A stretch of DNA of 57,783 nucleotides from Heterotrichella gracilis (Eukaryota; Sar; Xanthophyceae; Tribonematales; Xanthonemataceae): the NCBI GenBank assembly GCA_032358255.1, contig JAULBX010025663.1, forward strand, positions 1 through 57,783, given 5' to 3'. A model generated the notes under the pieces. The model was not told the DNA's origin. It made no database searches and was given only the letters and a program-made list of their open reading frames with translations. Shown here piece by piece: positions 719 to 57,783 of this stretch. The stretch's first letter is position 1. Each line of letters opens with the position of its first letter. Both the position numbers and the translations under genes were made by a program.

Positions 719-3058
719 TCAAATGTTGGCGTAGTCCCCGCGCCGCACCCCCACCGTGAGCCAGCATCCCTGGGCGCAAAATAAAATAAATAAACAAATA
801 TCTACGCAGCCTGTCCTTGAACAGGCGCGTTGGTTAAGGAAGAGGATTGAGCGAAGAAAAGGATCCCTGGGCGCACCAGCACACACAGAGCCCGTCAAGC
901 TCGTAACCACACATGCATGTTGGGTTGGCTTTGCATGGGCACTGGATGTGCATTTGCAGATCCTTTCAACAGCAAACCTAGCTGCCGCTCTGGTAATAAT
1001 GCTGTATATTGTGCATGTGCATGATTGCCACAGGGTATATATACCTGCACAACCCCACCATGGCAGATGCCATTCCCACTATCCAACCCGCAAAATACCC
1101 CTCGCAGTTCCAACCCCTCGCAGTTCCATCGACCCTATGCCTTCTAACTTTCTTGCCCCGTTCCCACTCCTGTGCACCCCCAGCCACCATACCCCCACCC
1201 CTCACCTTGTAGGACCCCGCCTCCACCTTTTCCACACAGAACGTGAACCTCTGCGCCACACCCCCTTGGCCCACCTCCATCCCATGCACCTCCCTATCAC
1301 CTGGCCTATGCCCTCACTACCTGGATGCTTCTACCACTCTTTCTTAAGTCAGATTGAACCCTACACCTGTGCACCCCCAGCCATCATGCCCCCACCCCCT
1401 ACCTTGTACGACCCCGCTTCCACCTTCTCCACACAGAACGTGAACCTCTGCGCCACACCCCCTTGGCCCACCTCCACAGCCACCACCGCCTTGCTGCTGT
1501 GGCGCACGCTGGGGAAAGTCACCGGGGACACGGCCTGGGAGAAAAATAACAATAACCCTGTAAAGCATATCAGGATGTCACAACCAAGCAATGTCAGTTT
1601 TATATCTTGTGTTATTTGTGCTGTGATATTCCATTGAAGTGCATTGTACATTTTTCAGGCAGACGCCAGCATGAATACACCAGGTCTACAAAATCAGAGC
1701 AACACTTCTGTGCACACCCTACCTGCCAGCTGTCGCAGTTGAGCATCTCACTGTAGAGGGGGGAGTGCAGCATGGATGCAAACTCGGATGGCGCCAGCCA
1801 CTCCTCCTTGGCACCCCAGCTGCGCACAGTGTTGCTGGGGCTCTGCACGCACAAATAATATGTGTATTTGCAACCCATGAGCTGTGTATGTGCTCCCTAT
1901 GAGATGTGTATCTGCAACCAAGTAATGTGCCTGCACAACATGTGTGCGCCCATGTGTTGCATGCAGGGCTGGCATGTGGGTGTATACATTGCCATGCATG
2001 TTTTTGGCATCATGCAACGTGCGAACAGCCGCCGGAACCACAAAACATTGCCCCAGAAAACCAACGTCAAACCAGAGCCAATGGCAGTACACAAAATACA
2101 AGCATGTACAGTGCCCTAGCCCTAGCCCATGCCTCCTCACCGACTGCCCAATCTCCTCCCCTGCCCCCCTTGGCCACGTGAACGCCCACACAGTGCCCAC
2201 CCCCGCATCCGCACCCGGCGAAAAGCAATCAACCGTAGATGTACGACATGCAGCTGACCGCTAGCATCACAAATTTCTGCACTAGGAACCCCGGGGGAAA
2301 ACCCCAGAACCCTATGCCACCTCACCGACTGCCCAATCTCCTCCCCTGCCCCCCTCGGCCACGTGAACGCCCACACAGTCCCCACCCCCGCATCAGCCTC
2401 GGGCCAGTCGTTGCGCTGCAGGGCGTCCATTTGCGCAGCCACTACCGCATGGGGCGGGAGCATGGGGGAGGGGCGGCGCGAGGCCATGAGGGGGGGCGTG
2501 CCCGCACTGTTGAGGTAGCGGGCAAATTGTGTGGACAGGTCGGGGCCTAAGTTGTCTGGGAAGGAAGGAAAATGTTTTGTTAACAAGCAGTGTTGCAAGC
2601 TAAAGGTTGTGCTGTGGGTGATGTGCTTCCATTTAAGCAGCCACCACCGCATGGGGCGGGAGCATTGGGGAAGGTGCGCGCGAGGCCATGCGGGGGGGGG
2701 GTGCCGGCGTGCGCTGTGGCAACACTGGCAGTTTTGGTCTCTTGTAGCTAACGTGGGCAGTGCAGGGGAAGCCTTCCGCGCCAGAAAAACCCTAGAGCAG
2801 TGGCGGGGGCAGGGTAAGCACCTCACCTCCACTTGACACACCGGAGCACATGGTTGCATGGCGACCCCTGTGACCTCCCCTCCAATAGCTTTGTTGGTGT
2901 TTCCTCCTTGTGATGTTGGCAGGCGCGCTGGTACTCCCTGTGAGGCTAGCACGCATACATATGCGGGGCTGCAGCAGTTGTGTGCAGGACTGCCCACCTG
3001 GGGATGGAGTGGGCACGTGGGTTGGAGGGAGGCTGACCCCGCACGCGTGTGTATGCAT
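719..3058 (-). CDS. Uncharacterised, probably organelle-targeted protein (DUF4864-like?)
   Basis: Five exons in transcript order: 3058-2827, 2555-2326, 1842-1723, 1534-1403, 769-719. Phases close and give 254 aa ending in ..GDYANI-stop. Residues 1-77 are rich in S, T, R, H and P and acid-poor, as in a plastid or mitochondrial transit peptide. The mature part has the pattern VVAAQMDALQRNDWP (exon 2), KEEWLAPSEF (exon 3), FTFCVEKVEAGSYK (exon 4) joined to GCWLTVGV (exon 5). This recalls small uncharacterised plant/algal proteins (DUF4864 type); that assignment is from memory and weak. The gene is divergent from the ABC transporter, with a 750-bp gap between starts. Exons 2 and 4 have partial duplicate copies in the adjoining introns. 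The first exon is the least certain. Confidence 0.6.
804..837 (+). repeat. Short dispersed repeat, copy A
   Basis: The 34-bp sequence starting ACGCAGCCTGTCCTTGAACA recurs at 36047-36080 in the same orientation and at 48672-48704 inverted, with a few changes. It contains a CCTGT/ACAGG stem. All three copies lie in non-coding DNA. Confidence 0.6.
1206..1277 (-). repeat. Donor-side copy of exon 4, gene 719-3058
   Basis: The last 24 codons of exon 4 (1534-1403) recur here in the same frame (EVGQGGVAQRFTFCVEK.., ending GSYK) and are followed by a GTGAGG donor. There is no acceptor at the 5' edge. Confidence 0.8.
2144..2212 (-). repeat. Donor-side copy of exon 2, gene 719-3058
   Basis: The 3' end of exon 2 (GTVWAFTWPRGAGEEIGQS) is repeated with a following GTGAGG donor. 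A more decayed, frameshifted copy of the middle of the same exon lies upstream at about 2635-2720. Confidence 0.8.
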
Positions 3059-3809: not shown

Positions 3810-6800
3810 TTGCAAACGCCAAGCATGGCGCAAATAGGCTTAGGCATGGGCGTCCACCCCACGCATACATATGCGCTGCCCGGACCCCGGGCCCAAACTC
3901 TCCGCAGCACAACCCACTGCCACGCTACGCTGCGTTCCCACACCCTCCGTGCCCTCCCACGAGCAACCCTCCAAGGGTTCCCCAGGCAGCACAGCCATGG
4001 CTATGCCGCGCAAGCACATACACATGTGTGCGGTCTGCAAGGCCACGTGCGCGGCCTCCCGGGCCTCGCAACCCCGCGCAAACATATCCTGTCGAGGCGG
4101 AGACACCACCCCATCGCAGCAGCGTCCGCCCATGCAGCGCTGCCGGCAGAACTACCCCGCGCGGCAGTCGCGGAGCCCCCGCCACCCCTCCCACCGCCGC
4201 CCAAGTCCGCCAGCCTCGCCCACGTGCTGCCATATCTCATGGAGCTGTCGCTTTCTGGCGGATACGGGACGATGCTGCGGCTGGCGGGCGCATTTGTGCT
4301 GCTGATTGCCTCCAAGGCAGCAGGTGGGTTGAGCAACGTATATGCATGCATATGCATATGCACACCGTATACATACCCCTTGTGCTGAGGCTACGCACGC
4401 CTGCATATGCACGTGCGTTGTTCTCATGAAATCATTATCTCCCTGCATCAGACACGCTTTGGTGCACACGCCCACTCATAAGCCTCCCCCCGCAAAACCC
4501 TCGCACCAAAACCCTAACCACAGTCACTGCCCCATCCCCCCCCAGGCCTGATGGCGCCAGTATACTTCAAGCACGCTGTGGATGCCCTGGGCGCATCCCG
4601 CATTGCCGGGGGCGTACAGGCCGCCATCACTGCGCTTGTGGTATCGGGGCTGTGCCGGGTGGTGAATGGTGTGGCGCGCGAGGGCATGATGCCCATCTTC
4701 ACGCCGGTGTCCCAGGTGGGGATGCATGTGTGAGGTGTGAGGATCGCATGGGAGGGAATGTAATTTGGGATGATTGGGATGTGTGCATCTGGTCTGTCCC
4801 ACTTTAGGGGGTTGTTGTTGGGGTTCTAGGCCGCCGCCGCGGCACTTGGGGTCAAGGAAGTAGGAAAGAAATGGGACGTAGCAAAGTGACTTGGTTGTCA
4901 CTGCTGCGCTACATTTTGCCAGGCCATGCTTCAGTATCAGTATCAGTATCAAATTCAAATTTAAATCAATTCAAAGTCGAATTGCTCTACAGGCTGCTGG
5001 GCGCCGAGTCGCCTACCACACCTTTGCACATGTGCTTGATCTTGACACCAAGTTCCACCTGGAGCGGCGCACGGGCGCGCTCTCGCGCATTCTGGAGAGA
5101 GGTGCGGGGCCCTTGGCTAGGGTTTTGGTGGGTTTGATACCTCCGCATTTTTCACTGGCCAACCAGCCTCTGCACTGCAACTGAGAATTGGACTCATCAT
5201 CTGCTGCCATGTGCTCCTTTCCACACTAACAAGTTCCCACCTCCCACTCACCCTCAGGAACCCGGTCTGTGGCCATGATCTTCCGCGCCCTTGTGTTCAC
5301 TTTCATACCCACCCTGGTGGAGCTGGTGCTGGTCACTACTCTGCTGGCACGGGCATTCAACCTCACCGTTGCTGCGCTGGTGGTGGCGACATTCGCTGTG
5401 TACGTCACCTGGACAATGGTGGTCACATCGGTAAGGGGGAAAACAAACAAAACCTTGCGACCCTAAGCTTTTCAGGCCCCATCGTAAACACAAAACCCCC
5501 AAACCATGGGGCCCACAACGTCCAGTGGCGGCGTTGGTCGTGTCGACATTCGCGGTGTACGTCACGTGGACAATGGTGGTCACTTCGGTAAGGGAGAACC
5601 AGAAAACCCTGCATCCACTGTAACAAATGAATATCGTATTGTTATTGGTTGCATAGTATTTTATGCTTAGAGTAGTCTTTTCCATTATTAAACCCATTAT
5701 ACATTTAATGAATGGAATAATTGCAACATTTGTACACCCAATTTTAAGGATAAAACTGTTCCACCGCCTGCCCACTTACCCACCTCCCCACCATCAGGCG
5801 GCCACCGAGGTGCGCAAGAAGGTGAACGAACTTGACACCCTCACATCGGGCAAGGCAGTGGATGCGCTGCTCAACTACGAGACGGTGAAGCTTTTTGGCA
5901 ATGCGCGGTTGGAGGTAGAGGCGTACGATGAGTACCTGGTAGGGTATCAGAGGGCAAGCGTGGCGACTGAGTCAATTGGGGCGACACTCAACGCAGGTGG
6001 GAAGCCTAGGGTAGGGTGTAGGGTGTAGGGAATACCTAGTAGGAGGGCAAGCAGTTGACTACAAGATGGGTCACCTGTTTGGCAACGCACGGTCCACCCC
6101 TTCTCGCTTCCCACACTGATACCCCTCCCTCGGCACCTCCCCACTTCCCTTACCACGCTGATGTAGCCCCCTCTGCACCTCCCCCCTCCCTCACCATGCT
6201 GATTCTGCCCGCTCCCCCTTCCCTTGCCATACTGATGCCCCCCCCCCCCCTCCCCCTTTTACAGGCCAGGCCACCATCCTTGCGGTGGGTCTGACAGCGG
6301 TGCTGGTGTCTGCGGCGGGCAGCTGCGCAACAGGGACAATGACGGCTGGGGACCTGGTGAGCAAACGCTAGAGTAGGGTATGGTGTTCACTTTGTGTGGA
6401 AACCCTGGAGTAGGGTTTGGGTGGTGGCCAGGGTGATGGTGGTTCCTGGTGTATGCACAGGGTAGGCTGGTGAGGCAATCACCAGGTGCATTCAACCCAA
6501 CCCTAGTTCAGGGTATTTGAGCGCCGTGTGGTTGGATGTGGATGGGCATTAATTACCTCCCTCTGGAACAATATTTATCGAGTTCTCACTTGCACCCTTT
6601 TTGCTGTCCCTAGGTGATGGTGCAGGGGATGCTTTTGCAGCTGTGGGGACCGCTGCAATTCCTGGGATGGTTTTACCGGGAGCTGCGCCAATCCCTGGTG
6701 GATATGGAGGCATTTTTGAACATCCTGCAAACCAAGCCATCCCTCCCAGACGGCCATTTGGACATGCCGGGCCCCCGGGATGCACGATCTGGGACGACGT

Positions 6801-9071
6801 TTTCAGAAAATGGGCACTCCAATGGTCATGTGGCGCCTGGTCCCTCTTCAAACGGGGATGGGGATGCCAGCAGTTCGGGACGAGGATTGTCGGTGGAGCT
6901 GCAGGTGCGGTGGTGGGGCCAAGGGCTGTGGTATACTGTGCTGCTCCCACGTAGGTGCATGCGTGTTGTACCTGTTGCGGCAACAAGCACTTCGGGTTCT
7001 GAGGTGTTGGTTGATTCCTGCTTCTTGTCACCATTCTGCTTCCCATGGCTGTGGTAAATTTCGTAAGCACCCTAACCCCTTCCCCCTCCCACACATTCAC
7101 ACCAATGCCCACCTCACATGCCCAGCACACTCCACACCCACTCCCATACCATATTATCCCCCTCTTCAGGACGTCCATTTCGGATACTCCCCAGAGCGGC
7201 CAGTCCTCAAGGGGGTGAACATCAAGGTGGAACCGGGGAGGAGCGTGGCCATAGTGGGGCCCTCGGGGAGTGGCAAATCCACGCTGCTGCGCCTGCTGAT
7301 GCGGCTGTATGACGTGGACGAGGGGGCGGTGGTGGTGCAAGGGGTGGATGTACGCGAGCTGAAACAGGTGCGGGGAGGAAGATGGGATGGGGTGTGGTGC
7401 TGTGCTCATAAAGTGTTTGGTGCTGGTGAAGGGAAGATGTGTTTGTTCACCACGGGGGGGGCAGAGCCTGCACGCTGCTGCAGCTGAAAACAGGGTTGGC
7501 GGTGAAGAAATGTGGGTTTTTGCCTGTGCAAATCTTACTACAAGAGCGTCACACCTTTTCCTCCCCTCCCCACAGACCTCTCTGCGATCCTGCGTGGCGG
7601 TGGTTCCCCAAGACACCGTGCTCTTTAATGAGAGCATCGCCACAAACATAGCCTACGGCAGGCCAGGCGCCAGTGCCGAAGAGGTGGAGGCTGCCGCCCG
7701 GGCCGCGCAGTTGCACCATGCTATTGCGTCTATGCCCAAGGGGTATGAGACTGTGGTGGGGGAGAGGGGGCTGAAGCTGAGCGGGGGGGAGAAGCAGCGG
7801 GTGGCGATCGCGCGTGCATTCCTGCGGTGAGTTGGTTTTAGGGTTTGTTTGCGGTGAGGTTTAGGGCGGCCACCCTCTGACCTACACCAAAACACTCCAC
7901 AACCACACACACACAAAAAATGCTGCTTATATATTCTATATGTCAAGGGCTCCCCGCGTGCTTATTTGTGATGAGGCCACCTCCGCTCTGGATAGCACCA
8001 CCGAGCGGGGAATCATGAAGTCGCCGCAGGAGCTGTCCACCTTCCTAAACACACCACCAAATAACCCCAAGACACTGACAAAACCCTCTTTCTCTCCTTG
8101 TGCAGGGCCCCCCGCCTGCTTATATGTGACGAAGCCACCTCAGCCCTAGACAGCGCCACCGAGCGCGGCATCATGAAGTCGCTGCAGGAGCTGGCCAGGG
8201 GTCGTACCTCGGTGTTTGTTGCCCACCGGCTGTCCACCATCAGGCACTGCGACAAGATTGTGGTGATGAGCGCCGGCAAGGTGGTGGAGGAAGGGACGCA
8301 CGAGGATCTGATGCAGGTGGGCGGAAAAACCCTTATCTGGGGTTTTGGTGAGTCCTTCCAGGTTTGGGGTGAAGTTAATTGCTAGGGTTTTGACACAACC
8401 CTTAAGATCGTGGTGAAGAGCGTCGGCAAGGTGGTGGAGGAGGGCACGCACGAGGAGCTGATGCAGGTGGGGCGGAAAACCCTTAGCTAGGTTTCTCAAG
8501 TGGAAAACCCTTAGTTAGGGTTGGGGTGGTGCGTGGGGGCAAGGTGGTGGAGGAGGGCACGCACGAGGAGCTGATGCAGGTAGGCGGGGAAACCTTTGAA
8601 GAGCTCCTAAAAAACCCTAAAAGTATGACATTGCTGCAGGCTGGCCGCGTGTACTGCGACATATGGGAGCTGCAGGAGGCGCAGCAGGCAGTGGAGGATC
8701 ACCTTAAAACCCTAACCCCCCAACCCGAAACCCGAAACCCGAAACCCTAATGTTTGCCTGCAGGCTGGCCGCGTGTACTACGACATGTGGGAGCTGCAAG
8801 AAGCGCAGCAGGCAGTGGAGGATAACCCTAAAACCCTCATTCCTGAACCACAAACCCTAACCTCGCCTGCTGCAATTTGTCCAAACAAAAGCCTAAACCC
8901 TTATTTTGTCTGCAGGCTGGCCGCGTGTACTACGACATGTGGGAGCTGCAGGAGGCGCAGCAGGCTGTGGAGGAGGCGCTGCAGTCACGCGAGGGAGATG
9001 TGGCGGAGGGCATGCTGCCGCCGATGGAAGGCGCGGGGGTGATTCAGGGTGTGCCGGTGCACGCTGCCTAG
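3810..9071 (+). CDS. ATM3: ATM/ABCB7-type mitochondrial half ABC transporter
   Basis: Eleven exons: 3810-4323, 4546-4715, 4993-5101, 5258-5430, 5798-5996, 6265-6356, 6614-6904, 7170-7367, 7576-7826, 8106-8316, 8916-9071; phases close to 787 aa. The family sits in the mitochondrial inner membrane and exports glutathione-linked sulfur compounds for cytosolic Fe-S assembly. The membrane domain (about 150-470) has the ATM/ABCB7 signatures [27 protein letters not shown]-like [12 protein letters not shown] and [15 protein letters not shown]. The nucleotide-binding domain has Walker [10 protein letters not shown] (about 546), signature LSGGEKQR (about 650), Walker [13 protein letters not shown] (about 668) and H-loop AHRLST. 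A roughly 50-residue S/G/N-rich linker in exon 7 separates the two domains. The first 130 residues look like a long R/H/A-rich presequence; the Met at 3810 is a choice and an upstream exon is possible. Copies of exon edges lie in introns 4, 9 and 10. An ABCB6/HMT1 relative is less likely. Confidence 0.85.
5527..5587 (+). repeat. Donor-side copy of ABC transporter exon 4
   Basis: Sixty bases of exon 4 recur 96 bp after the real donor, again followed by GTAAGG. The encoded end [17 protein letters not shown] becomes [17 protein letters not shown]. Of seven base differences counted, six are synonymous. An AG at 5523-5524 could act as a weak acceptor. Confidence 0.9.
7948..8042 (+). repeat. Acceptor-side copy of ABC transporter exon 10 (Walker B)
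   Basis: This copy of the start of exon 10 encodes [20 protein letters not shown] and follows a CAAG acceptor-like site. It matches the working exon at 8106 ([20 protein letters not shown]). Of 14 base differences counted, 10 are synonymous. No donor follows; the copy fades into intron sequence with CCC(C)AAG and CCCT motifs. Confidence 0.9.
8404..8579 (+). repeat. Two donor-side copies of ABC transporter exon 10
   Basis: Copies at 8404-8466 and 8538-8579 repeat the end of exon 10 ([13 protein letters not shown], here ..HEELMQ). They are followed by donors GTGGGG and GTAGGC. Copy units are separated by ACCCTTAG/TTAGGGTT motifs. Confidence 0.9.
8640..8820 (+). repeat. Two acceptor-side copies of ABC transporter exon 11
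   Basis: Copies at 8640-8696 and 8764-8820 are each 57 bases (19 codons, [19 protein letters not shown] with one or two changes) and each follows a perfect CTGCAG acceptor. Both end after GTGGAG, where the real exon (8916) continues. CCCTAA-type tracts follow each. Confidence 0.92.
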
Positions 9072-10893: not shown

Positions 10894-12936
10894 ATGCTGC
10901 GCCAAATGCCCACATGGCACAGGGGGCGCGACAGACCAGAGGGGGTAATTTCCCCCTCGATTCTGTCGGCAGACTTCGCAAAATTGGCGGATGAGTCTGA
11001 GAGGATGGTGTCCCAAGGAGCGGAGTGGCTGCACGTGGATGTCATGGTGAGGGCAAAACCCTAACAAAATCCTAGCCAATCCCTAGCCCAAATCCGCCAA
11101 CAACCAGGCTACAGTGTTCAATCGCAGGATTGCTATTGTCTGGATAAACCCTAGCATTGCATGGGTGCACAAATCCCGGCCCTCTAAATCATCGCCATCA
11201 CCCCAGTCACCCACCTCCCCCAAACCCCCACTTCCCCTTAAACCCCCACCTCCCCTCAAACCCTTGCAAAACGGGCTTTTGTGCCCTAGCCTGGCCCCCT
11301 TCCAAATCGTCCTCATCATGTCCCACCCCCCTCCCTTGCAGGACGGCCATTTTGTGCCCAACCTCACCATCGGCGCACCCGTGGTTGCCAGCCTGCGCAA
11401 GCACACCACCGCATTCCTCGACTGCCATCTCATGGTCACGCACCCGGAGCAGTGGGTCAAGGTGCGTGTAGGGTTTAGGGTTTAGGGTTTGGGGTGGCGC
11501 ACCCGTTGTTGCCAGCCTGCGCAAGCACACCACCGCGTTCCTCGACTGCCATCTCATGGTCACACACCCCGAGCAGTGGGTCAAGGTGGGTGTGATACGA
11601 TGGTGGAGGGGGGAGGAGGAGGGGGGAGTGTGACATGCGTGCTCTGAAGTGCATGCAGGATTCATCTTTGACGACAGTAGGTAGGGTCTTGCATTTGTTC
11701 TCAACAGACCCTAAGTACTGGAGGCATTACATGCATTCCTCGACTGCCATCTCATGGTCACACACCCGGAGCAGTGGGTCAAGGTGGGAAAATGTGGGTG
11801 TGTGGATGTGGGTGTGTTGTGAGGTGAAAACCAAATTCCAACACACACTTGTAAAGGATATGTATATAAAGGGTACGAGATGATGTTGTCTAAACATTTT
11901 CTCAACACACACCTGAACACTTGTAAGCATATGAATGCGCACACGCTTGTGCACTCGTGCAGGACTTTGCAGCTGCCGGAGCAGACATGTTCACATTCCA
12001 CCTTGAAGCCATCTTAGGGGAACCATGCCCGCTGCTAGCCAAGGATAACAGGGTGGTTGACCTCATTGCAGCAATCAAGGGGGCAGGGATGCACGCGGGG
12101 ATTGCGCTCAAGCCGTCCACCCCCGTGGAATCGGTGTATCGATACGTGGAGGAGTGTGGCCTGGATATGGTGCGGTGAAAAAGGGCCCTTGGGGATCCAT
12201 TGTGTGGGGTTATGGGTCGTTGAATTGTGCCAGTGAGGGCAATGCTTGGCGGAACCTATGGCTTGGGATGGAAACAGCCCAATCCAGGGGTTTTGTGGAT
12301 GTCCACAGGTTGTGGACGCTCGTGTGGCACCCGCCCCATCCACGGTATTTATGAATGCATTGACTCTGAGACTCCCACCGGCACCCCTCGCCCTCCTGAG
12401 ACAGCACGCCAGTGACATTGTCCCCCCATGCTGCCTGCTGCAGGTGCTTATCCTGAGTGTGGAGCCGGGGTTTGGTGGCCAGAAGTTCATGAGCTACACC
12501 ATGAAAAAGGTGGAGGCGCTGCGGGAGAGGTATCGGTCGCTCAACATAGAGGTAAGGGGAGTGGATGGTGAGAAGTTGTAAGTCAAGCTTCCTTGCAGGT
12601 ACCACAATGGCTCCTCACAATCTACCACATTGCAATACCATTCCACCAATACCATCACCACACAAAATAGGTAGAATATACCAGCTTCTTTCCTAAATCA
12701 TGATTGAATAATTACAATGACAATCATAACCACATGGTTAATCCCTCCCCTTGCAGGTTGACGGCGGCTTGTCCCCCTCCACCATCAACGAGGCCGCGGT
12801 GGCGGGTGCAAACGTGATTGTGGCAGGGAGCGCGATATTTGGGGCCCAGGACCCAGGGGAGGTTATCAGGGGGATGAAGGAGGAGGTGGAGAAGGAGGCA
12901 ACGAATATAGTCATCTATAGGTGGGGCCTTGCCTAG
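10894..12936 (+). CDS. RPE: Ribulose-phosphate 3-epimerase (cytosolic type)
   Basis: Five exons: 10894-11046, 11342-11461, 11963-12169, 12444-12551, 12757-12936; all junctions are phase 0 and give 255 aa, close to the family size of about 230. The enzyme interconverts ribulose 5-phosphate and xylulose 5-phosphate in the pentose phosphate pathway. The TIM-barrel motifs are complete: [12 protein letters not shown], the metal and catalytic pair in [27 protein letters not shown] and [10 protein letters not shown] with the second catalytic Asp. [14 protein letters not shown] and the ALKPSTPVE segment match the cytosolic rather than the plastid form. The reading frame is open upstream to 10810, so a short N-terminal extension or a start at 10906 is possible. 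Exon 2 has two donor-side copies in intron 2. Confidence 0.93.
11494..11784 (+). repeat. Two donor-side copies of RPE exon 2
   Basis: Copy 2 (about 11495-11586) repeats the last 30 codons of exon 2 and copy 3 (about 11735-11784) the last 16, each followed by GTGGG. Copy 2 begins directly after a GTTTAGGGTTTAGGG-type tract. The four base differences I count in copy 2 and one in copy 3 are all synonymous. Neither copy has an acceptor. Confidence 0.92.
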
Positions 12937-15900: not shown

Positions 15901-16824
15901 GGTGTTGGTGAACACCAGGTGAGAGAAGCAAAAGACCTTATCAGGTAGCAACAACGCTTCTGATACGATGCCCACTCTCGAGTCTGCAACCTGCAATCTC
16001 GACTGCCCGCCAGTTTGGTTACCCTTGCTAGGGTTCAGCAAGGTGGGGAACACTAAGGTCACAAACGATGAGGCTGTTACGCACTCATGTTAGCATGACA
16101 GCGATGGTATAGAGTTACAAGTCCATTACAGAAAGCAGGCATGTTTGATCAATGGAGTTACAAGACTAGTTCATCAACCACATAGCAGTCCGCATCAGGA
16201 ACGCACAATCCACCTGATGGCCACACGTCCCCGATAAAGATAAATCAGCTTTGTCAGATTGAGACTCAAGCCCTACTGCGCAACAGACATCCCAGCTGCA
16301 AACAGATAACAGCAAGGGGGAAGCAAGCACCATAAAAACAAAATTCGTGGCGGAAAATACTATTTTGTTTCTACCCCTTGACAAGCGGCCAGCTCTGTAA
16401 CTCCACTGAGACCCCCCAAGGATGTGTAAACCCTGCACCCTGAAAATACTCCTCCTGTTTCTCCGCCACTTGCGCCGCCAGCCTGGTCGCGATCCCCTAA
16501 ATGCTCTAAATACCCTAAACCCTAAACCCTATCCCCATACATCCCCTCCTCCTTTCTCTCCGCCAGCTGCGCCGCCAGCCTTTGCCATGGGACCCTAAAT
16601 ACTCTGATTACCCTAAATCCTAACCCTAAACCCTACACCCCCTCCTCTTCTATCCCCGCCAGTTGCGCCGCCAGCCTTTGCCACGAGACCCTACATACTC
16701 TGATTACCCTAACTCCTAACCCTAAACCCTACACCCCCTCCTCTTCTATCCCCGCCAGTTGCGCCGCCAGCCTTTGCCACGAGACCCTACATACTCTGAT
16801 TACCCTAACTCCTAACCCTAAACC
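12937..16824. other. Convergent spacer between RPE and RIF1
   Basis: No gene is firmly supported in this 3.9-kb stretch. It holds a telomere-type tract at about 13340-13372. An open, acceptor-preceded plus-strand segment at about 13575-13795 (E/G/A-rich, stop at 13795) could be a stray terminal exon. A large foldback lies at 15055-15415. TTACA motifs at about 16110-16125 could be TGTAA signals for RIF1 on the minus strand. Confidence 0.4.
15055..15415. mobile_element. Foldback (inverted-repeat) element
   Basis: The left arm (about 15055-15228) is a diverged reverse complement of the right arm (about 15236-15412). Matching blocks include GGGAAAgTCCCGCCG with GGGAAAaTCCCGCCG, GGAATGgGGCGT with GGAATGaGGCGT, and AGAAGCAcGAGCGGTG with AGAAGCAaGAGCGGTG. 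The centre carries CCCTGGG...CCCAGGG. The left arm can be read as coding (LYNQEWGVLQKHERCTRKW), so the element may derive from an inverted duplication of a coding fragment. No transposase was seen. Confidence 0.6.
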
Positions 16825-16880
16825 CTACACCCCCTCCTCTTCTATCCCCGCCAGTTTCGCCGCCAGCCTGGCAGTGAGTC
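16440..16880 (-). repeat. Tandem copies of the RIF1 terminal exon end
   Basis: The end of the last RIF1 exon (LAAKLAGIEEEGV-stop) is followed by about three more copies of a roughly 100-bp unit. Each unit carries CTGGCGGCGCAACTGGCGG, the GGAGGGGGTGTAG stop region and TTTAGGG tracts. Two adjacent units around 16680-16840 are almost identical. Confidence 0.85.
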
Positions 16881-44600: not shown

Positions 44601-45520
44601 GACTAGGGTTTAGCCCCGCACCTGCTCAAGCCCATGCCCTGTATCCCTCATCCATGACCACAACGAGCGTGAGCTTGAGCCCAGCTGGGTCCAACCCCTA
44701 AACCCTTAACTAGGTTTTGGCCCCGCACCTGCTCAAGCCCACGCCCTGTACCTCTCATCCATGACCACAAAGAGCGTAAACTTGAGCCCAGCTGGGTCCA
44801 ACCCTAAAACCCTTAACTAGGGTTTGGCCCCGCACCTGCTAGAGCCCACGTGCTGTACCCCTCATCCGTCACCACAAGCAGCGTGCGGTTGTGGTCAGGC
44901 CCAAACCCTAACCCTAAACCCTAAACCCTAAATGCCATCACACCTGCTGCCGCCCACGCGCTGTACCCCTCATCCGTCACCACAAACAGCGTGAGGTTGA
45001 GCCCCGGCCTGTCCAGTAGCGTCCGCAGGCGGGTGGTGGAGGCAGCTGCTCGGTAAGTGCTGGTGCCCGGGAGGGACTGCAGGGACTGCCATATGGTGGT
45101 GGTGCAGGGGGCCTGCGGTAGGAGGTGGGGGGAGGGGGGTGCAGGGGGGGTGGGGGGTGCTGATGCCGGGGAAGCAGTGGACTGACAGATGGTGGTGGTG
45201 CAGGGGGCCTGCGGTGGGGGGTGGGAGGCGTGGGGGGTGAAGGGGTTGCAAGGGGGGAGAGGGGGTCGGTGCAGGTGCTGAGCAGAAAATAGAGCCAGTA
45301 TTGGTGCGTTAAACCCTAAACCCTAAAACAGGGTGCATAGGGTTTGTGCAGGGAATCCTATACCCTGGGTCCCCACCTGCGGCACCGCTGCTGGCTGCGC
45401 CTCCCCCACAAGGAGCGCTGTGAACAGCAGGCAAGTGAGTGACTGCCAGGTGGCAGGCCGCCAGCCCCCAACACGTGTGTGCGCTCTCATTAGTGGGGGA
45501 GAAGCTGCATGTTCAGACAT
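35662..45520 (-). CDS. Receptor-like kinase: two fasciclin domains, TM, TKL kinase
   Basis: Sixteen exons: 45520-45377, 45112-44944, 44046-43847, 43446-43258, 43014-42967, 42528-42357, 42086-41875, 41026-40772, 40217-39996, 39709-39343, 39066-38930, 38543-38278, 37916-37606, 37234-37129, 36734-36256, 36005-35662; phases close to 1206 aa. Exon 1 encodes a signal peptide (WQSLTCLLFTALLVGEAQP). FAS1-like domain 1 spans about 65-235 (LNLTLFVVTDEGYSAW, LLYMMTPGF, IYTVDVVMLP). FAS1-like domain 2 spans about 245-455 (LAITLLAAGNAQWEEF, VIYYLDAVVYPQ). A proline run precedes one TM helix (about 502-526) with FRRKGRR on the inner side. The kinase (about 695-970) has LGEGAFGKVYKG, AVKIL, HLDVKSANILL, VGDVGIAHVL, GTWGWMAPEV and DVYSYGVLLWEIVTG, as in TKL kinases. 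HRD is HLD and DFG is DVG; catalytic Lys, Asp, Asn and Asp remain. The tail is acidic and Ser/Pro-rich. Probably surface sensing of wall or adhesion state; ligand unknown. Confidence 0.87.
36047..36080 (+). repeat. Short dispersed repeat, copy B
   Basis: TGCAGCCTATCCTTAAACAG and the following GCGCGCTTGTTAAG match copy A at 804-837 with a few changes. It lies in the last intron of the receptor kinase gene. Confidence 0.6.
37008..37065 (-). repeat. Donor-side copy of kinase exon 14
   Basis: The end of exon 14 (CCGCACAACAGGCAGCTGAG, then GCCAGTCAA against GCCAATCGA) recurs with a GTACGCAG donor. TTTAGGGTTT tracts lie between the copies. The matching acceptor-side copy is at about 37347-37425. 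Confidence 0.85.
37347..37425 (-). repeat. Acceptor-side copy of kinase exon 14
   Basis: A CTGCAG acceptor and GCACCACGGTGACCCCCCGT plus about 45 further bases copy the start of exon 14 (TTVTPRADVYSYGVLLWEI, here ..YSHGVLLWEI) upstream of the working exon at 37234. Confidence 0.9.
38078..38172 (-). repeat. Donor-side copy of kinase exon 12
   Basis: About 90 bases repeat the end of exon 12 (REIVVILMELMEGGSLRQAL region), decayed, followed by GGTAAG. The working donor is at 38277. Confidence 0.85.
38811..38903 (-). repeat. Donor-side copy of kinase exon 11
   Basis: The P-loop exon end (DDIIIATTPTGRDVLL.EGAFGK) recurs with a GTGAGA donor. Here LGEGAFGK reads LEEGAFGK. A short stub of the same end sits near 38667. 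CCCTAAACCC tracts intervene. Confidence 0.9.
40389..40725 (-). repeat. Five donor-side copies of kinase exon 8
   Basis: The exon 8 end ERELRAAAGLPE recurs with varying length near 40390, 40471, 40579, 40640 and 40688. Most copies are followed by GTGCG or GTACGT donors and separated by TTTAGGG-like tracts. The working end is at 40772. Confidence 0.85.
41272..41795 (-). repeat. Three donor-side copies of kinase exon 7
   Basis: Copies end at about 41272, 41478 and 41733. They repeat up to 42 codons of exon 7 (ADAYCLLDLVAVGEVDSPGD..FGPGGT), each followed by GTGCG. Two copies start beside CCCTAAACCCTAAA. Confidence 0.92.
42600..42810 (-). repeat. Three acceptor-side copies of kinase exon 6
   Basis: Copies near 42610, 42700 and 42800 carry CTGCAG/TTGCAG plus CAATGTAACGGGACCAGCAT or a close variant. 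The last extends through TCCAGTCCGCCTTTGCTGGC, with one base inserted. The working exon starts at 42528. Confidence 0.88.
42894..42966 (-). repeat. 73-bp dispersed repeat, copy 2, ending on a splice donor
   Basis: It matches 1-73. On the minus strand its first bases GTAAGTATTTGCTACCC form the donor of kinase exon 5 (43014-42967). The repeat therefore starts exactly at the exon boundary, as introner elements do. Confidence 0.65.
43036..43190. repeat. CAC/GTG microsatellite
   Basis: Interrupted (CAC)n tracts lie in kinase intron 4, close to the acceptor of exon 5. Long open frames here are an artefact of the repeat. Confidence 0.95.
43643..43715 (-). repeat. Donor-side copy of kinase exon 3
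   Basis: A diverged copy of the exon 3 end (QLAYVTKSDWPLMLHYNASFDE reads SLAYVTNGDWS..DNASLDQ) is followed by GTGCG. The working end is at 43847. Confidence 0.8.
44222..44944 (-). repeat. Six donor-side copies of kinase exon 2 (FAS1 core)
   Basis: Six extra copies of the exon 2 end (LNLTLFVVTDEGYSAWAAAG) occur, ending near 44238, 44352, 44464, 44621, 44726 and 44836. They are spaced about 105-157 bp apart with CCCTAAACCC/CTAGGGTTT tracts between. Each keeps a GTG(C/T)G-type donor. The working end is at 44944. An acceptor-side copy of the same exon lies near 45187-45215. Confidence 0.92.
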
Positions 45521-49000: not shown

Positions 49001-49002
49001 CA

Positions 49003-50444: not shown

Positions 50445-50670
50445 ACGCGTGAGCTTTGGTGCCTGAAACTTACAGTGAAAGCGAGCTTTTTGCCTGGTGC
50501 ATCACTGGGTCGCCTATGTGTAATACATGAAGCAGAATCGAGGAGGAAAGGGCGACTCGCCTCGTCGCAAAAACTTGCAAAAATACATCCGCCGCTTCGC
50601 ACTGTTGTACTTCTTTCACAAGAAACAAGCGGCGTTGCAGCTATTCATCAATAAGGCGTTGGTAAAGCCG
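50445..50670 (+). repeat. Segmental repeat, copy 2
   Basis: Homologous to 46930-47150 (shared CAGAATCGAGGAGGAAAGGG and CAAGAAACAAGC blocks). It lies after the decayed relative and about 1.6 kb before the RWP-RK gene. Confidence 0.65.
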
Positions 50671-52207: not shown

Positions 52208-55200
52208 ATGAGCCTGCTCCAATTGGTGGACATTGCCCTTGGTGAGGAGTCAGGGGGGAGCGACTCGACGCTCATGCAGGTGGGGAGGTGTCCTAGTGTT
52301 GTAATTTGCCTTGTTAGGGTTTTGCGTCTTAGGGTCTAGGGGTGCTGGTGGGGAGCGACTGGACGCTCATGCAGGTGGGATGATTTCCCTAGTGCTGCAG
52401 TTTGCCCTGTTAGGGTTCAGAATCGTAGGGTCTAGGGGTGCAGGTGGGGCGGCGACTCGACGCCTATGCAGGTGGGACGTTTCTAATACTGGGCTCTTAC
52501 CTGCACTTGACCACATGAACACAGAGGAGTGGCCCCTTCTTTTTCCAAGCAGCATCGCTGTCTTGTAGCTGGTATTTAGAAAGGGTGTTCAGGGCTTAGG
52601 GGTTGCAAGTGTGCTACCTTGGGGCAGTACCTTGCACCAACTTCCTTTGAGTCTACTTGTATTACATTGGTCGTTGCATATGCATGTATGATGGCCTGTC
52701 AACACAATCACTTAAATCCTCGCAACTAAATATATGTTTGGTTCTTTTCCGGTCACGCAGGGAGGGACTTCGGCCCCAGGGCCAGGCGAAACCCTGCTCC
52801 CCGACGTGGACCTCATGCAGGCCCAAACCCTATCAGGGTGTGCAAACCCCAACAATGCCCTAGGCCAGCGGGGAGACCCCAATGACGATGACCTGTTCAG
52901 CTTGGCCCACATGCCGCTGGAGCCGGCTTCCCACGGTTTCACCCGATTTACCTCTCTCCCCTCAGGTAAGTAAGACATAAACCCTAAACCCTATATAGCA
53001 CTGGGCAGTTTTAGTTCCTAGACTCTAATTGTAGGTCTTAAATGGGTGATGTCCAACCCAGTATGGTGTCCAAATTGTGTCTCAATCTAGGTACTTGGCT
53101 TGGCCACCAATCTAGAAGGGCACTCACGTTCCAAAAGATGCGAAGGTACAAGTAGAAGTTGCAATTATGACTGCTAACCTGACTGTACTGCTGGATTGCA
53201 CGTAACAGACTCACCAACCTCTCTCCCCTCCAATCAGACCTCCTGTGCTCCACCACCGGCTTTTTCCAAGCCACTGACGAGTGCCTCGCCGCGCGCACAG
53301 CCAACCCCATGCCCACACACCCCCACCACCAGCAGCAGCACTTCGCCACCTTACAGCGCGCAAATTCCCTGGGCGCCCCCCCCGCGCACCCCACCAACCC
53401 CTCTCTCCCCCTTGGGTACGCCTCCCAGCCCAGCCCCACCCACCAGCAGCACAGCAACCCCTCCTCATCCGGAGGGGGAGTGGATCACAATTATGGGATG
53501 GTGCGGTTTTCCTCGCTCCCGCCTGAGTTGGATGGGCTGACGCAGTTGGTGCACCCCGGGGGTGGGCTCGGTCCCCAGTTGCTGGATGACGGCATGGGGA
53601 TTGGGGGCGGGGATGACGACCTGGGGATGCAGCCGGTGCAGCGACAGGTGAGCGGTGGAATCTTATGAGTTTTTCTTACCAATCGCATCACCCTGACAAT
53701 GCACTCCATCCATGAATTTTGCCATCCCCATTCACTCTCCTATCCCACCATTCCACTTCACGCCCCACAAAACCCTCCAAAACCTAACCCCCACCTTTTC
53801 CATGAACCCCCTAAACCCTGAATGCAAACCCTCTAAACCCTGAATTTAAACTCTGAATTCAAACCCTCTCAACCCTGAATCCGAATCCTTACCACCCCTT
53901 CCCTGGTCTGCAGAACTCCATCGCCCTCTCGCAAGACACCTCCGCCTCCACCTTTTCCATGAACTCCCTGGAAGCCGCGGGGGCCCTCTATCGCCTCTCC
54001 GAACCCCAAACCCGCGAGGACGGCTTTGAAACCCTAAACCCTAACCCCCTGGCCACCACGCTCACCAGCAGCCACAACCCCAAGGGGGCAACCGTCAATT
54101 CCCGCAAGGGGGAGTCGACAGGGGGGGAAATGGATGCGGGGGCGCTGGCGGTGCACCAGCGGCTGCAGCAGCTAAGGGACGCCTCCCATGGGGCGGTGGG
54201 GGTTGGTGGGGGGGGTGGGGGGGGTGGGGGGGGTCAGCCCCGTCGGCAGAGTTCGAGCGACAGTGGGGGGCATATGAATGATTTGGCGCAGCTGGCGGAG
54301 GAGCAGCAGGGGCACATGCGCAGGTAACCCTAAAACCCTAATAATATAATGCCCTAGACCCTAAACCCTGCTGCCTAAGAGTGGTAGTAGGTGCATGAAT
54401 GACCTTGCACAGCTGGCGGAGCAGCAACAGGGGCACGTGCGCAGGTAGGCTTAAAAACTAATACCCTGCATTTTTCAGAGAAATGCATGGTTCCCTGTTC
54501 AGTGTACCTTTGGCTTGTGCCACTGGTGGCGAGCCTTGCAGCTGAAAGTCACTGCATTTCTATGCTGACAAGTTGTGTTATGGGGCTGGCATGGGAACGG
54601 CCTGAAACTCCATTTCTCTGCCCCCCCTCCCCTCCTCTCTCTCTCTTCTCTAGTACCTGCTTCAAAAGCGCTTAACTAAACCCCTGATTTAATCTTCCCT
54701 GTGCCTTTGCCTCCCCCCTCAGGTATGCGATGGCGCATGAGGCGGCATCCCAACACCACTCGGGGGCGCCGTACCACTCGGCCGCGCCGCACCACCCCAC
54801 GTACCACATGCCGCCGCAGCACTGGGGCGCGTGGGAGGACATGCAGGGCCACATGGGGGGCCACATGCACCACCCCGCCATGGCACACATGTACGCGCCG
54901 CACCCGCACCCGCACCAGTACCACCACCCGCACATGCGCCCGGACCCCTACTTGCAGCCCGGGGGCGGCGGAGGTCCTCGCGGCGGCTACATGCCGCGGT
55001 ACCCGGGCGGCATGGCGGGCGGGTACGGCATGCCGCACTACCCGCCCGGGCCCGGCTACATGCATATGGACCCCGGCGGCGGGGGGCATGAGCCCATGCC
55101 GCCGCGGCGCAACCACGACCTGTACCCGACGGCGGTGCCGGTGGGCGCGGGAAACAGCCAGCGCGCCACCTGGCACTACCTCCAGAGCCTGCGGGCGCAG

Positions 55201-57783
55201 GCAGAGCGGGACCTCGGCGCCGCACCAGGTGGCGGGGGCATGGCGGCGCCGCCGCCGTCCCGCGGCATGTACGCCAGCGGCGGCAGCGGGATGGCGGGTG
55301 GCGGCATGTACAGCGGCGGTGGCGGGGCCATGGCGCCGCAGGAGGGTTTCTTCTCGGACGCCGCTGGCGGCTATCGGTACCCGCAAGGGGAGGAGTACGC
55401 GCGGGATTGGAGGGGCGAGCGCCAGATGCGGCGGGAGCCTCAGGTGCGAGAGGGCTCGTGCATGCCTCTGTAGTGCTCTGTCATACTTGCATGCTCGCTG
55501 TGGTTGGGGAAACGCTGGGGGGGCGCGCGTGGTTCTACTGAAGTGTGGCATGCTCTTTGTCACCCCTCTGATACTGATATTGTCCACATCTGGGGTGCAC
55601 ATGTCTTGCCTTGCTACTGGTGAAGCGGTGTGTTAAATGCCAACAGGGGCATTGGGTCTGTGCCACGTTTCAATATCATTTATTCTTGAGTATCAACCTT
55701 GTGAGCCCAGGCTGGCGCCCTGATTGTGACTGTCAATTAAATAGATAAGTCAATGTCCTCCAAGAAACCGTCATACCATCAAATCCATCAATGACAAGTT
55801 GTGTTGTTCCGCCACAGGAGGCCCGGGAAGCCCCGGTGGTGGTGCAGCCGCCAGTGAGGTCGAGGAAAGCCTCCAATGGTGCAGGCTCCTCCAGGCGCTC
55901 AGGGTCTGCAGCCAGTCTTGGGGTCAAGGCATCGGCCAGAGGTGGGTGGCGGGGGCTGTGGTAGTTGGTTTGTGGGAATGCTGGCCTTATTTATACAGTC
56001 AGTGACATGCAATGCAGCCAGGAAGCCAGTTGTTTAATTGCCAAGGTAGGGTTTAGGGTTGAACAATGAAGGGTGGCAGGGACATTGGTGGAAATATGTG
56101 TCAAGGGAGCTAACGACATGCATGCCATGGCGGCCAATCTGGAGAATTTGCACAAGCGAGCACGGGAGTAACTCCGTGTCTGCACCCTAGCTAAGGGTAC
56201 TTATGTGTGTGTCCCTGCAGTGTCCCAATTCCAGGACCTAGATTCCGACACATTGTCAGACCCCGAGCCCTTCCCCCACACCCGCCCCCCCACCAAGAAG
56301 CGCTCCGCCCGCAAAATCTCCCCCCGCATCCCCGCCACCCTCCACCAAATCCCCGTCGCCGAGGCCAGGCGAGCCCCGGGGATGGGACGCGCCAGCTTCC
56401 CCCTGCGGGATTCCTCCCCTGCCCACCCAGACGCCTTGCGGGATTCCTCCCCTCACAAGCGCGCGCGGGGACACCCCCCTGGCGTCGGCGCCAGGCCCCA
56501 CACCACAGCCGCAGCACCCACCGCAGTACCCACCAAGGCGCCGGCCACAGCCACCGGTGGGGGTGGGGGTGGGGGTTTGAAGCACCGGAAGCCCCAGAAG
56601 GCCAAGGTGCCTTCTTCAAATGTGCAGGCGGTGACCCTGGATTTCCTGGTGGAGAACGGAGTGTTTGACCTGCCCATTGACGTACGTGGGCAAAATCCTG
56701 TACCCTAAATTTTGGACCCTTAAACCCTAAACCCTGGAATGTGCGAGCGACCTAGGGCAAGAAACCCAGAACTTCAACCCGAATCCTAGGCCTAGAAGCT
56801 CTAGTATCCTAACCTAGAACCCTGAAGCTAGAACCCTCGAGCCTTAGAAGGCCTGCTGTACCCAAATACCCTTGCCAAACCCTCCTCCTCACAGGAGGAC
56901 CATGTACAACACTAAAATGTAGCAGTCGCCACTGACCCCCGAGCATGCCCCACACCACCACACCACCACAACCACACCACCACAACCACACCACACACAC
57001 CCACAGGACGCCGCCGACTCTCTCGGCATGGCCACCACCACGCTCAAGAAGCGGTTGCCACAAGCTGACCCACCACCACCACCTGGGAATTCCTTGAAGT
57101 AATCATTAAAAAAAAAGGCAAATTTTCAAAATGGTTCAAAATAACCAAAAATATTGAGGCGCCAACCCCATAGGCCACCACCCACCCACTTTCCCCTCCT
57201 GCAGGATGCTGCTGACTCCCTGGGCATGGCCACCACCACGCTCAAGAAGCGGTGTCGCAAGCTGGGTGTGCAGCGGTGGCCCTACCGCAAGAAGAGGTCG
57301 GTGGAGAACCTGAGGGCGCTGGTGGTGGGGCTGCAGGTGGGTGTCAGGGTTCGGGTGGTGGTGGTTCATGTGGATGGTAGGGTGTTGGTGGTGGTGGTCT
57401 TTGTGGTTGTGCTGGTGGCGGTGGTCCGTTGGTGGTGGTGGCGGTGCTGTGTTACTGCCCGCCTTGACTCCCAAGCTGGGTGAGGCGATGCCGCATTTAC
57501 AACCCTAGCCCCCAAACCCTAAAAGAGCCAATGGTGTGCAGGCTGATGGCGGTGGCGGTGGCCAACCCGGTGGCGGGTTCAAAACCGCGTTCAAAACCCT
57601 AGACCCCAATCCCTAGACATTGAAAAGAGCCAATTGTGTACATGTGCAGGCTGACTGGAATGGCGGTGGGCCGCCAGGTGGCGATGCCGCAGAGATCCGC
57701 GAGCTGCGGGAGGCATGTGCGGGGGTGATGGAGCGGGTGGGGGAGCTGATGAAGGACCCTAAGGAGGTGCGGGTGGTGGGGGT
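52208..57783 (+). CDS. RWP-RK domain transcription factor (3' end beyond window)
   Basis: Nine exons, phases consistent: 52208-52279, 52761-52965, 53238-53647, 53914-54323, 54723-55443, 55818-55941, 56221-56681, 57205-57336, 57650-57766; at least 884 aa, open at the right edge. RWP-RK proteins are plant/algal nuclear DNA-binding regulators of nitrogen responses and gamete or sex determination. The domain lies at about 782-845: VTLDFLVENGVFDLPID then DAADSLGMATTTLKKRCRKL and GVQRWPYRKKRS, with RWPYRK for RWPxRK. Upstream are Gly-, His-, Met- and Gln-rich low-complexity regions (exons 3-5) and basic patches (TKKRSARK, HKRARGH) likely for nuclear import. A helical RELREACAGVMERVGELM segment follows. 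The frame is open before ATG 52208, so an earlier start is possible. Edge copies occur for exons 1, 4, 8 and 9. It is not a full NIN-like protein as far as seen; no PB1 domain is in view. Confidence 0.85.
52346..52475 (+). repeat. Two donor-side copies of RWP-RK gene exon 1
   Basis: The exon 1 end (GGGGAGCGACTCGACGCTCATGCAG) recurs at about 52350-52374 and 52445-52472 with one or two changes, each followed by GTGGGA. GTTAGGGTTTTGCGTCTTAGG-type sequence lies between the copies. Confidence 0.85.
54390..54444 (+). repeat. Donor-side copy of RWP-RK gene exon 4
   Basis: About 55 bases repeat the exon 4 end (HMNDLAQLAEEQQGHMR, here CMNDLAQLAEQQQGHVR) followed by GTAGGC. CCCTAAAACCCTAA lies just before it. 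Confidence 0.9.
55698..55742 (+). repeat. Dispersed repeat shared with 18497-18536
   Basis: CTTGTGAGCCCAGGCTGGCG, CCCTG, TGACT and TTAAATA occur in the same order as at 18497-18536 (CTTGTGAGCCTGGGTTGGCT..). One copy lies in an RWP-RK gene intron and the other in a RIF1 intron. Confidence 0.55.
57007..57053 (+). repeat. Acceptor-side copy of the RWP-RK core exon 8
   Basis: A CCCACAG acceptor is followed by 16 codons encoding DAADSLGMATTTLKKR exactly, then divergence. The five base differences from the working exon (57205) are all synonymous. Confidence 0.92.
57541..57580 (+). repeat. Acceptor-side copy of RWP-RK gene exon 9
   Basis: A GTGTGCAG acceptor plus GCTGA.TGGCGGTGG..GGTGGCG copies the start of exon 9 (57650), about 110 bp upstream. 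CCCTAGACCCC-type sequence follows. Confidence 0.75.

What the first reader, a model, noticed from the sequence alone, without database searches (positions are those of the whole stretch)
719..57766. Many exon edges are tandemly copied into the adjoining introns, with splice sites kept
In L (719-3058), the ABC transporter, RPE, RIF1, the receptor kinase and the RWP-RK gene, I see at least 25 exon edges with extra partial copies. Donor-side copies follow the working exon and end in GT; acceptor-side copies precede it and begin after AG. No clear copy has both splice sites. Units often start or end in CCCTAAA/TTTAGGG tracts. This looks like a genome-wide process of tandem duplication across exon-intron borders with breakpoints in telomere-type repeats. 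It would create arrays of competing splice sites and grow introns. I know of no described system matching it.
Basis: partly seen in the sequence, partly recalled or inferred. Interest (0 to 1): 0.92.

Follow-up and report, generated by a model that had tools for sequence, protein, structure and literature searches.

The report
Exon edges duplicated beside telomere repeats
In this unnamed green alga the outer 50-60 bases of many exons, together with about ten bases across the splice site, have been copied into the neighbouring intron, often beside scraps of telomere repeat, which points to an unusual and apparently widespread way of breaking and repairing genes at exon borders.

Summary
My gene models give 28 of 152 exon edges in the window (25 of 76 introns) with a copy in the adjoining intron, and 46 of 640 edges in 250 kb from six other contigs. 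A probe test gives 58 of 314 exon tails and 31 of 326 exon heads copied into their own intron, against 0-1 in controls and 2 of 259 for exon interiors. Telomere-type tracts (TTTAGGG, also found at contig ends) often lie between copies: 109 of 301 tracts versus 7% of random anchors. The copied unit is lopsided: about 56 bp of exon, about 10 bp of intron, also where no tract is near. Best reading: recurrent small tandem duplications at breaks near splice sites, with telomeric DNA joined in or acting as the weak point; one-sidedness mostly reflects survival of the working exon. Nothing shows that the extra splice sites are maintained. Unexplained: why breaks fall next to splice sites, and why young copies differ from the working exon mostly at silent positions (46 silent, 19 replacement). 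The ingredients are known singly; I did not find this concentration at exon edges described.

The parts
1169..1279 (-). Gene L: intron copy of the donor-side exon edge 1366-1476
   Evidence: 94% identical; exon border from gene finder only
2130..2212 (-). Gene L: copy of donor edge 2315-2397
   Evidence: 95% identical; telomere-like tract 2299-2314 abuts the working copy
5516..5598 (+). ABC transporter (ATM1 type): copy of donor edge 5358-5441
   Evidence: 86% identical; exon confirmed by orthologs
7946..8039 (+). ABC transporter: copy of acceptor edge 8104-8197
   Evidence: 85% identical; exon confirmed by ortholog
8404..8597 (+). ABC transporter: two copies (8404-8476, 8525-8587) of donor edge 8254-8325, with tracts 8327-8345, 8383-8402, 8477-8522
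8634..8823 (+). ABC transporter: two copies (8634-8698, 8758-8822) of acceptor edge 8905-8974, with CCCTAAA-type tracts 8707-8750 and 8824-8860
   Evidence: 94-95% identical
11469..11490 (+). RPE: telomere tract (about three TTTAGGG units) between working edge and first copy; none directly after the copy
11496..11592 (+). RPE: copy of donor edge 11372-11468; a further partial copy at 11733-11788
   Evidence: 95% and 96-98% identical; RPE by Pfam and PDB
17053..17232 (-). Copy of acceptor edge 16874-17034 (71% identical)
21264..21383 (-). Copies of acceptor edge 21062-21124 (at 21264-21325) and donor edge 21522-21576 (at 21330-21383) in one intron
27630..27706 (-). Copy of donor edge 27838-27914
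   Evidence: 86%; tract 27806-27837 at the junction
28137..28506 (-). Array of copies (three pairs counted) of donor edge near 28602-28676, separated by TTTAGGG tracts
30458..31206 (-). Copies of acceptor edge 30305-30361 and of donor edge 31243-31310 in one intron, with tracts between
31634..32043 (-). Three copies of acceptor edge 31469-31587
32615..32854 (-). Copies of donor edge 32888-32945; tracts 32690-32715, 32769-32791, 32855-32884
33144..33226 (-). Copy of acceptor edge 32954-33033
37000..37053 (-). Kinase gene: copy of donor edge 37115-37168, tract 37056-37114 between
   Evidence: 89%; kinase domain by Pfam
37360..37436 (-). Kinase gene: copy of acceptor edge 37175-37250
   Evidence: 94%
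38074..38188 (-). Kinase gene: copy of donor edge 38270-38384
   Evidence: 85%
38798..38899 (-). Kinase gene: copy of donor edge 38924-39025, tract 38902-38921 between
   Evidence: 91%; 8 silent and 1 replacement difference
39190..39259 (-). Copy of acceptor edge 39021-39094
   Evidence: 80%
40440..40539 (-). Copy of donor edge 40739-40838, tract 40667-40738 at the junction
   Evidence: 80%
41262..41795 (-). Three copies (41262-41399, 41480-41601, 41732-41795) of donor edge 41862-41999
   Evidence: 93%, 95%, 97% identical; the nearest copy is the most similar
42753..42813 (-). Copy of acceptor edge 42479-42538, no telomere tract near
   Evidence: 97%
44209..44925 (-). Array (five pairs counted) of donor edge near 44941-45009, tracts between units
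52350..52477 (+). Copy of donor edge 52255-52380, TTAGGG-type tracts between
   Evidence: 84%
54395..54446 (+). Copy of donor edge 54274-54325, tract 54326-54369 between
   Evidence: 87%
57004..57067 (+). RWP-RK gene: copy of acceptor edge 57202-57264
   Evidence: 87.5%; 6 silent, 1 replacement difference; RWP-RK by Pfam

Best explanation
Exon edges suffer recurrent small tandem duplications by break repair. SHOWN: the duplicated segment runs from about 55 bp inside the exon to about 10 bp past the splice site; it is seen at 74 of 792 edges by repeat pairs and 89 of 640 by probes; a telomere-type tract lies at the inner junction in about half of the cases and in 14 of 20 of the youngest; the copy with the second set of splice bases lies inside the intron. 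INFERRED: a staggered break opens with one end just inside the intron (often at a telomere-type tract, which is a weak point and/or is lengthened there) and the other end in the exon; both overhangs are filled in and the ends are joined, giving working edge - telomere tract - copy. This is the outcome expected of CST/Pol-alpha fill-in plus end joining, with telomeric DNA as filler. Further slippage or unequal exchange between copies gives arrays of unit plus tract. Only events that leave one complete working edge survive, so copies are one-sided; the copy then decays and the intron is longer. Why breaks fall beside splice sites is not explained; chromatin or transcription-linked features of the exon border are guesses.
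For: Copies are concentrated at exon edges: own-intron copies (score 20 or more) of exon tails 58/314 and heads 31/326, reversed probe 1/314 and 0/326, other intron 0 and 0, exon interiors 2/128 and 0/131. 54 of 100 non-overlapping clusters contain an exon edge versus 34.3 +/- 4.4 in 1000 circular shifts (maximum 48); wholly non-coding pairs are 12 versus 42 expected. Telomere tracts lie between copies in 109 of 301 cases versus 7.1% of 904 anchors placed away from tracts, 0 with the reversed flank; median distance to the copies 10 and 8 bp in 99 rows. Tracts are at the inner junction of 14 of 20 young pairs (identity at least 90%) but 7 of 32 old ones (below 84%). Lopsided unit: at identity of at least 88% (n 29) intron part median 9 bp (IQR 7-13), exon part 57 bp; in 12 pairs of at least 86% without a tract nearby the next 30 bp are on average 28% identical (range 0.10-0.47), so there the unit really ends. 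A clean young case without outer tract is RPE 11372-11592. (TTTAGGG)8 occurs on 11 contigs, six of them at contig starts in the outward orientation, so it is very probably the terminal repeat. CST/Pol-alpha fill-in is known to make small homology-independent tandem duplications (PMC8355091, passages), and telomeric repeats are known to be inserted at breaks, some with duplication of the flank (PMC2246262, passages and one section).
Against: 9 of 20 young pairs also have a tract on the outer side of the copy and in some the tract is clearly part of the duplicated unit (read by eye), so the tract often preceded the duplication. The orientation expected if telomerase extends each broken end is not seen at donors (51 G-strand: 46 C-strand). 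Bases in register with the tract are not in excess at the priming side (1 of 4 versus 4 of 12 at the other side; too few). 6 of 20 young pairs have no tract at the inner junction. 46 of 100 clusters contain no exon edge by the test. Young copies differ too little in amino acids for a simple live/dead pair, which this model does not predict. In one array the copy most like the working exon is the outermost with decayed copies in between (read by eye).
Confidence: 0.47

Rival explanations
1. Tract first: telomere-type tracts already sit just inside introns (perhaps because they help splicing), stall replication forks, and the polymerase restarts a little upstream, duplicating exon edge plus tract as a unit.
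For: Tracts are enriched 11-40 bp from donors and 21-50 bp from acceptors, also at edges without a detected copy (64/312 donors, 44/334 acceptors, random intron 40-mers 8.9%). Outside edge arrays, tracts are flanked by copies about equally often near and far from splice sites (13/97 and 12/102, score 25 or more), above control anchors (9/124 and 11/335), so the tract itself seems to attract duplication. Several arrays repeat unit plus tract with shared imperfections (by eye; the 96-bp x 4.4 array at 16449-16869). Interstitial telomeric tracts are a known source of rearrangement (PMC6410037, passages).
Against: 12 pairs of identity at least 86% without a tract within 25 bp end at the same place. 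6 of 20 young pairs have the tract only inside.
Confidence: 0.28
2. The copies are functional: spare or competing splice sites or alternative exon ends under selection.
For: Silent differences are in excess: 261 silent to 236 replacement over 74 pairs (0.525) against an upper limit of 0.421 for one working and one dead copy; 46:19 and no stop in 406 codons at identity at least 90%; 53:25 in 11 pairs of genes confirmed by homology. The gene finder called 25 copies as complete exons.
Against: Copied splice sites are kept about as well as the rest. 21 of 74 periods are multiples of three, as by chance. 14 stops in 1381 codons. The silent excess fades with age to 0.399 below 80% identity, whereas selection on copies should persist.
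Confidence: 0.08
3. Copies are templated from a diverged functional version of the gene: the other haplotype of a heterozygous or hybrid diploid, or RNA from it, so that young copies already differ at silent sites. This could be added to either break model.
For: The silent excess is strongest in the youngest pairs and decays with age. An allodiploid hybrid with 2.7% heterozygosity and pervasive loss of heterozygosity is known in the trebouxiophyte Auxenochlorella (PMC12636532, passages).
Against: No second allele was found in the assembly for two window regions. Third-position divergence of the youngest pairs (24 of 278) is higher than the heterozygosity reported there. No reads were available.
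Confidence: 0.3
4. Assembly artefact, for example haplotypes strung in tandem through a telomere repeat.
For: Draft assembly of 903 contigs.
Against: Copies span about 70-98% identity with graded decay, stops and indels; junctions join telomere tract to exon interiors, which no normal haplotype offers; controls are nearly empty.
Confidence: 0.04

Closest known systems
CST/Pol-alpha-primase small tandem duplications at breaks with 3' overhangs (PMC8355091)
   Same: Tandem duplications of tens of bp without need of homology, made by telomere-maintenance machinery at breaks
   Different: Shown at induced breaks in cultured cells; no telomeric filler and no tie to exon borders in the passages seen
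Interstitial telomeric sequences inserted at double-strand breaks (PMC2246262)
   Same: Short telomeric tracts at internal sites, some with duplication of flanking sequence (6 of 130 rodent, 4 of 25 primate loci)
   Different: There duplication is a minority class and 67-80% of loci have in-register bases; here copies flank about a third of tracts, units are about 77 bp and concentrate at exon edges, and the register signal was not found in few cases
Tandem duplications from adjacent single-strand breaks in plants (PNAS 2016, 113, 7266; part of the title seen in a reference list; paper not held; otherwise recalled)
   Same: Duplications of tens of bp from staggered breaks
   Different: No telomere repeats or exon-edge focus known to me
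Intron gain by tandem duplication and by break repair (PMC3296678, passages)
   Same: Local duplication producing intron sequence
   Different: In that model the copies overlie donor and acceptor of one new intron; 0 such cases here
Introners (recalled)
   Same: Many similar events across a genome, in introns
   Different: Mobile families; here copies match their own exon (other-intron control 0 of 640)

Membership tests
Telomeric repeat insertion at breaks | Telomere-type repeats at internal sites, same unit as the chromosome ends | tested here: met
Telomeric repeat insertion at breaks | Bases at the break in register with the inserted repeat | tested here: inconclusive
   1 of 4 priming-side junctions versus 4 of 12 others
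Telomeric repeat insertion at breaks | Strand of the repeat points outward from each extended end | tested here: not met
   Donor side 51 G: 46 C; acceptor side 15 G: 52 C, the latter also explicable by splicing constraints
Telomeric repeat insertion at breaks | Empty orthologous site | not testable with these tools
   No relative genome held
CST/Pol-alpha tandem duplication | Small tandem duplication with little or no junction homology | tested here: met
   Copy length median 77 bp; junctions of 43 pairs read by eye, most exon-side junctions with no shared base; not counted by script
CST/Pol-alpha tandem duplication | Dependence on CST and Ku | not testable with these tools
   Needs mutants
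Intron gain by tandem duplication | One copy over the donor, the other over the acceptor of the same intron at the same offset | tested here: not met
   0 of 162 pairs
Introners | Related copies in unrelated genes | tested here: not met
   Other-intron control 0 of 640; no pairs at 5-6 kb; not tested against the whole assembly
Alternative or mutually exclusive exons | Copy with both splice sites | tested here: inconclusive
   25 copies were called as exons by the finder and dropped by rule; after that 0 in the window, 3 copy intervals elsewhere
Alternative or mutually exclusive exons | Transcript evidence | not testable with these tools
   No RNA data held

The most novel reading that the evidence does not exclude
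A genome-wide mutational process aimed at splice-site borders: breaks fall about ten bases inside introns, telomere-maintenance enzymes process them, and a stretch of exon (perhaps from the other haplotype or its RNA) is pasted beside telomeric filler, so that introns grow by budding copies of exon edges.
Probability: 0.3. Interest if true: 0.85.

Novelty: new variant of a known kind. Interest (0 to 1): 0.7.

Why it matters
It would give a natural, abundant record of break repair by telomere machinery inside genes, a route by which introns lengthen and decoy splice sites arise, and a case where DNA breakage seems to read exon borders. The lopsided unit makes the question testable: any model must say why one end lies about ten bases past the splice site on both donor and acceptor sides.

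Tried and rejected
Telomerase orientation rule: no bias at donors. In-register bases at junctions: too few informative cases. Intron-gain type pairs: none. Conservation of copied splice sites beyond the rest: none to speak of. Branch-point use of CCCTAAA tracts: CTAAA is commoner 20-29 bp before acceptors with a tract (12% of 138 versus 1% of 214), but this follows from the tract itself. Second allele in the assembly: none found for two regions. Simple live/dead divergence model: rejected by the silent excess, after correcting for base composition and CpG. A first print of junctions showed wrong letters through a script bug and was redone. A larger sample was not possible, so 'genome-wide' rests on the window plus 250 kb (0.36% of the assembly, 200 kb of it from one contig). 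The 25 predicted exons that were themselves copies were dropped by rule before counting edges (13 of them in the window).

Literature: searches (listings, capped at the rows shown); no listed paper describes exon-edge copies joined to telomere repeats. Only open-licence PMC papers were searched.

Full report
What was examined. The window is contig C315 (bases 1-57783) of an unnamed 68.5 Mb, 903-contig genome. Its ABC transporter (ATM1 type) is closest to trebouxiophyte green algae (Elliptochloris bilobata 70%, Trebouxia 67%, Coccomyxa 66%), with no near-identical protein among the 120 listed. I compared the window with 250 kb from six other contigs. No annotation or RNA is held, so I wrote a two-strand gene finder trained on the sample itself; it gave 458 exons. 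ABC and RPE were checked against known proteins, kinase and RWP-RK by Pfam. Other exon borders rest on the finder alone; it erred at one RPE donor, and after copy-exons were dropped two of four window chains contained stops.

Local direct repeats, with telomere-like bases masked: 162 pairs in all within 1 kb, none at 5-6 kb distance. Of 792 exon edges, 74 have a copy in the adjoining intron: 28 of 152 in the window, 46 of 640 elsewhere; the RWP-RK edge is a further one in the window. A separate test that needs only the exon borders gave 58 of 314 exon tails and 31 of 326 exon heads with a copy in their own intron at score 20 or more; reversed probes gave 1 and 0, other introns 0 and 0; exon interiors 120-180 bp from the edge gave 2 of 128 and 0 of 131. 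So the window is richer than the rest (18% versus 7% of edges), but the process is not special to it. If the 250 kb are typical, the genome would hold of the order of ten thousand such edges (inference).

Anatomy. In gene direction, donor cases read exon - working edge - [tract] - copy of the edge with GT - rest of the intron; acceptor cases are the mirror image. The unit is lopsided: exon part median 56 bp, intron part 11 bp (n 74); at identity of at least 88% (n 29), 57 and 9 bp, the intron part being shorter in 27 of 29. In 12 pairs of at least 86% identity with no tract within 25 bp the intron part is also about 11 bp and the next 30 bp are unrelated (mean identity 0.28). Masking does not produce this in those 12, and survival of the working exon does not predict it: a longer intron part would do no harm, and on the acceptor side it would help by carrying the branch point along (inference). 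Units contain exon edges more often than circular shifts predict (54 versus 34.3 of 100), and wholly non-coding duplications are rare (12 versus 42 expected). Faster decay of non-coding pairs can explain part of the latter, by my estimate less than twofold.

Telomere tracts. (TTTAGGG)8 is found on 11 contigs, six of them at contig starts; for the other five I did not fetch the contig length. So it is very probably the terminal repeat. Inside the sample, 301 tracts were scored: 36% (109) have copies on their two flanks at score 22 or more, against 7.1% of 904 anchors placed away from tracts and 0 for reversed flanks. Tract density is 0.11-0.14 at 11-40 bp past donors and 0.07-0.09 at 21-50 bp before acceptors, against roughly 0.045 further in. 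Tracts are commoner at the junctions of young pairs (14 of 20) than of old ones (7 of 32), so they seem to decay quickly. Outer tracts (9 of 20 young pairs) show that the tract is often part of the repeated unit, or that events recur at the same edge. Outside edge arrays, tracts near splice sites (13 of 97) and far from them (12 of 102) are flanked by copies about equally often, above control anchors (9 of 124 and 11 of 335): the tract attracts duplication even away from edges. The 70 of 70 inside arrays in that call is circular, because arrays are defined by copies.

Strand of the tract. Near acceptors the sense strand reads CCCTAAA (52 of 67), near donors there is no preference (46 C, 51 G), mid-intron 109 C to 87 G. 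Extension of broken ends by telomerase predicts G-strand at donors, which is not seen. Avoidance of TTTAG|G as a false acceptor, or use of CCCTAAA as a pyrimidine tract with branch point, would explain the acceptor side (inference).

Are the copies alive? Splice sites in copies are kept about as well as the rest of the copy. 21 of 74 periods are multiples of three, as by chance. Yet the coding part is odd. There are 261 silent and 236 replacement differences, 0.525 silent, bootstrap interval 0.477-0.575 (72 edges with at least 8 codons). With substitution rates measured in non-coding columns and CpG taken into account, a copy that is dead from birth beside a perfectly constrained exon should not exceed 0.421 (74 pairs). 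The value is 0.708 at identity of at least 90%, then 0.585, 0.530, and 0.399 below 80%; in 11 pairs of genes confirmed by homology 53:25. Such a gradient is what one would see if copies start out already different at silent sites, that is, if the template or the present working exon came from another allele, and then decay freely. Constant selection on copies predicts no such fall, though dilution by wrongly predicted exons in the oldest class may contribute. Reads would settle this; I have none.

Mechanism. I favour small tandem duplication by break repair with telomeric DNA at the join (confidence 0.47), next fork stalling at pre-existing tracts (0.28). These two figures were moved by 0.03 on checking, because, which I had first counted against the tract-first rival, in fact speaks for it. 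Copying from a diverged allele is an addition to either. What none explains is the choice of exon edges.

Novelty. Each ingredient is published: telomere repeats inserted at breaks, sometimes with flank duplication (PMC2246262, passages and one section); small tandem duplications made by CST/Pol-alpha (PMC8355091, passages); instability of interstitial telomere tracts (PMC6410037, passages). The concentration at exon edges with a fixed short intron part I did not find in the searches listed. I call it a new variant of a known kind.

Noticed in passing
74 edge pairs over window and L009-L033: Copies differ from working exons too rarely in amino acids, most of all in the youngest pairs (46 silent to 19 replacement); points to a diverged template or to recent constraint.
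   Followed up: partly
introns of the whole sample: Telomere tracts near acceptors read CCCTAAA on the sense strand 52 to 15; near donors no bias.
   Followed up: partly
42479-42813: The copy most like the working acceptor edge (97%) is the outermost; decayed partial copies seem to lie between (read by eye), so order is not always age.
   Followed up: no
8425-8471 and 8538-8584: Two intron copies are 98% identical to each other but 86-90% to the working edge, so arrays also expand on their own.
   Followed up: no
16449-16869: Minisatellite of 4.4 units of 96 bp, each holding an exon-edge-like part and CCCTAAA tracts.
   Followed up: partly
20194-20460: 84-bp repeat, about three units, lying wholly inside a predicted exon of the RIF1-like gene.
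   Followed up: no
whole sample: CpG is depleted (observed/expected 0.49 in introns, 0.62 in exons) and CpG sites in non-coding copies diverge about 2.5 times more than other G/C sites, which suggests CpG methylation.
   Followed up: no
G000 contigs C70, C140, C173, C460, C607, C609, C660, C712, C717, C770, C872: Contigs carrying (TTTAGGG)8, six of them at contig starts: probable chromosome ends.
   Followed up: no
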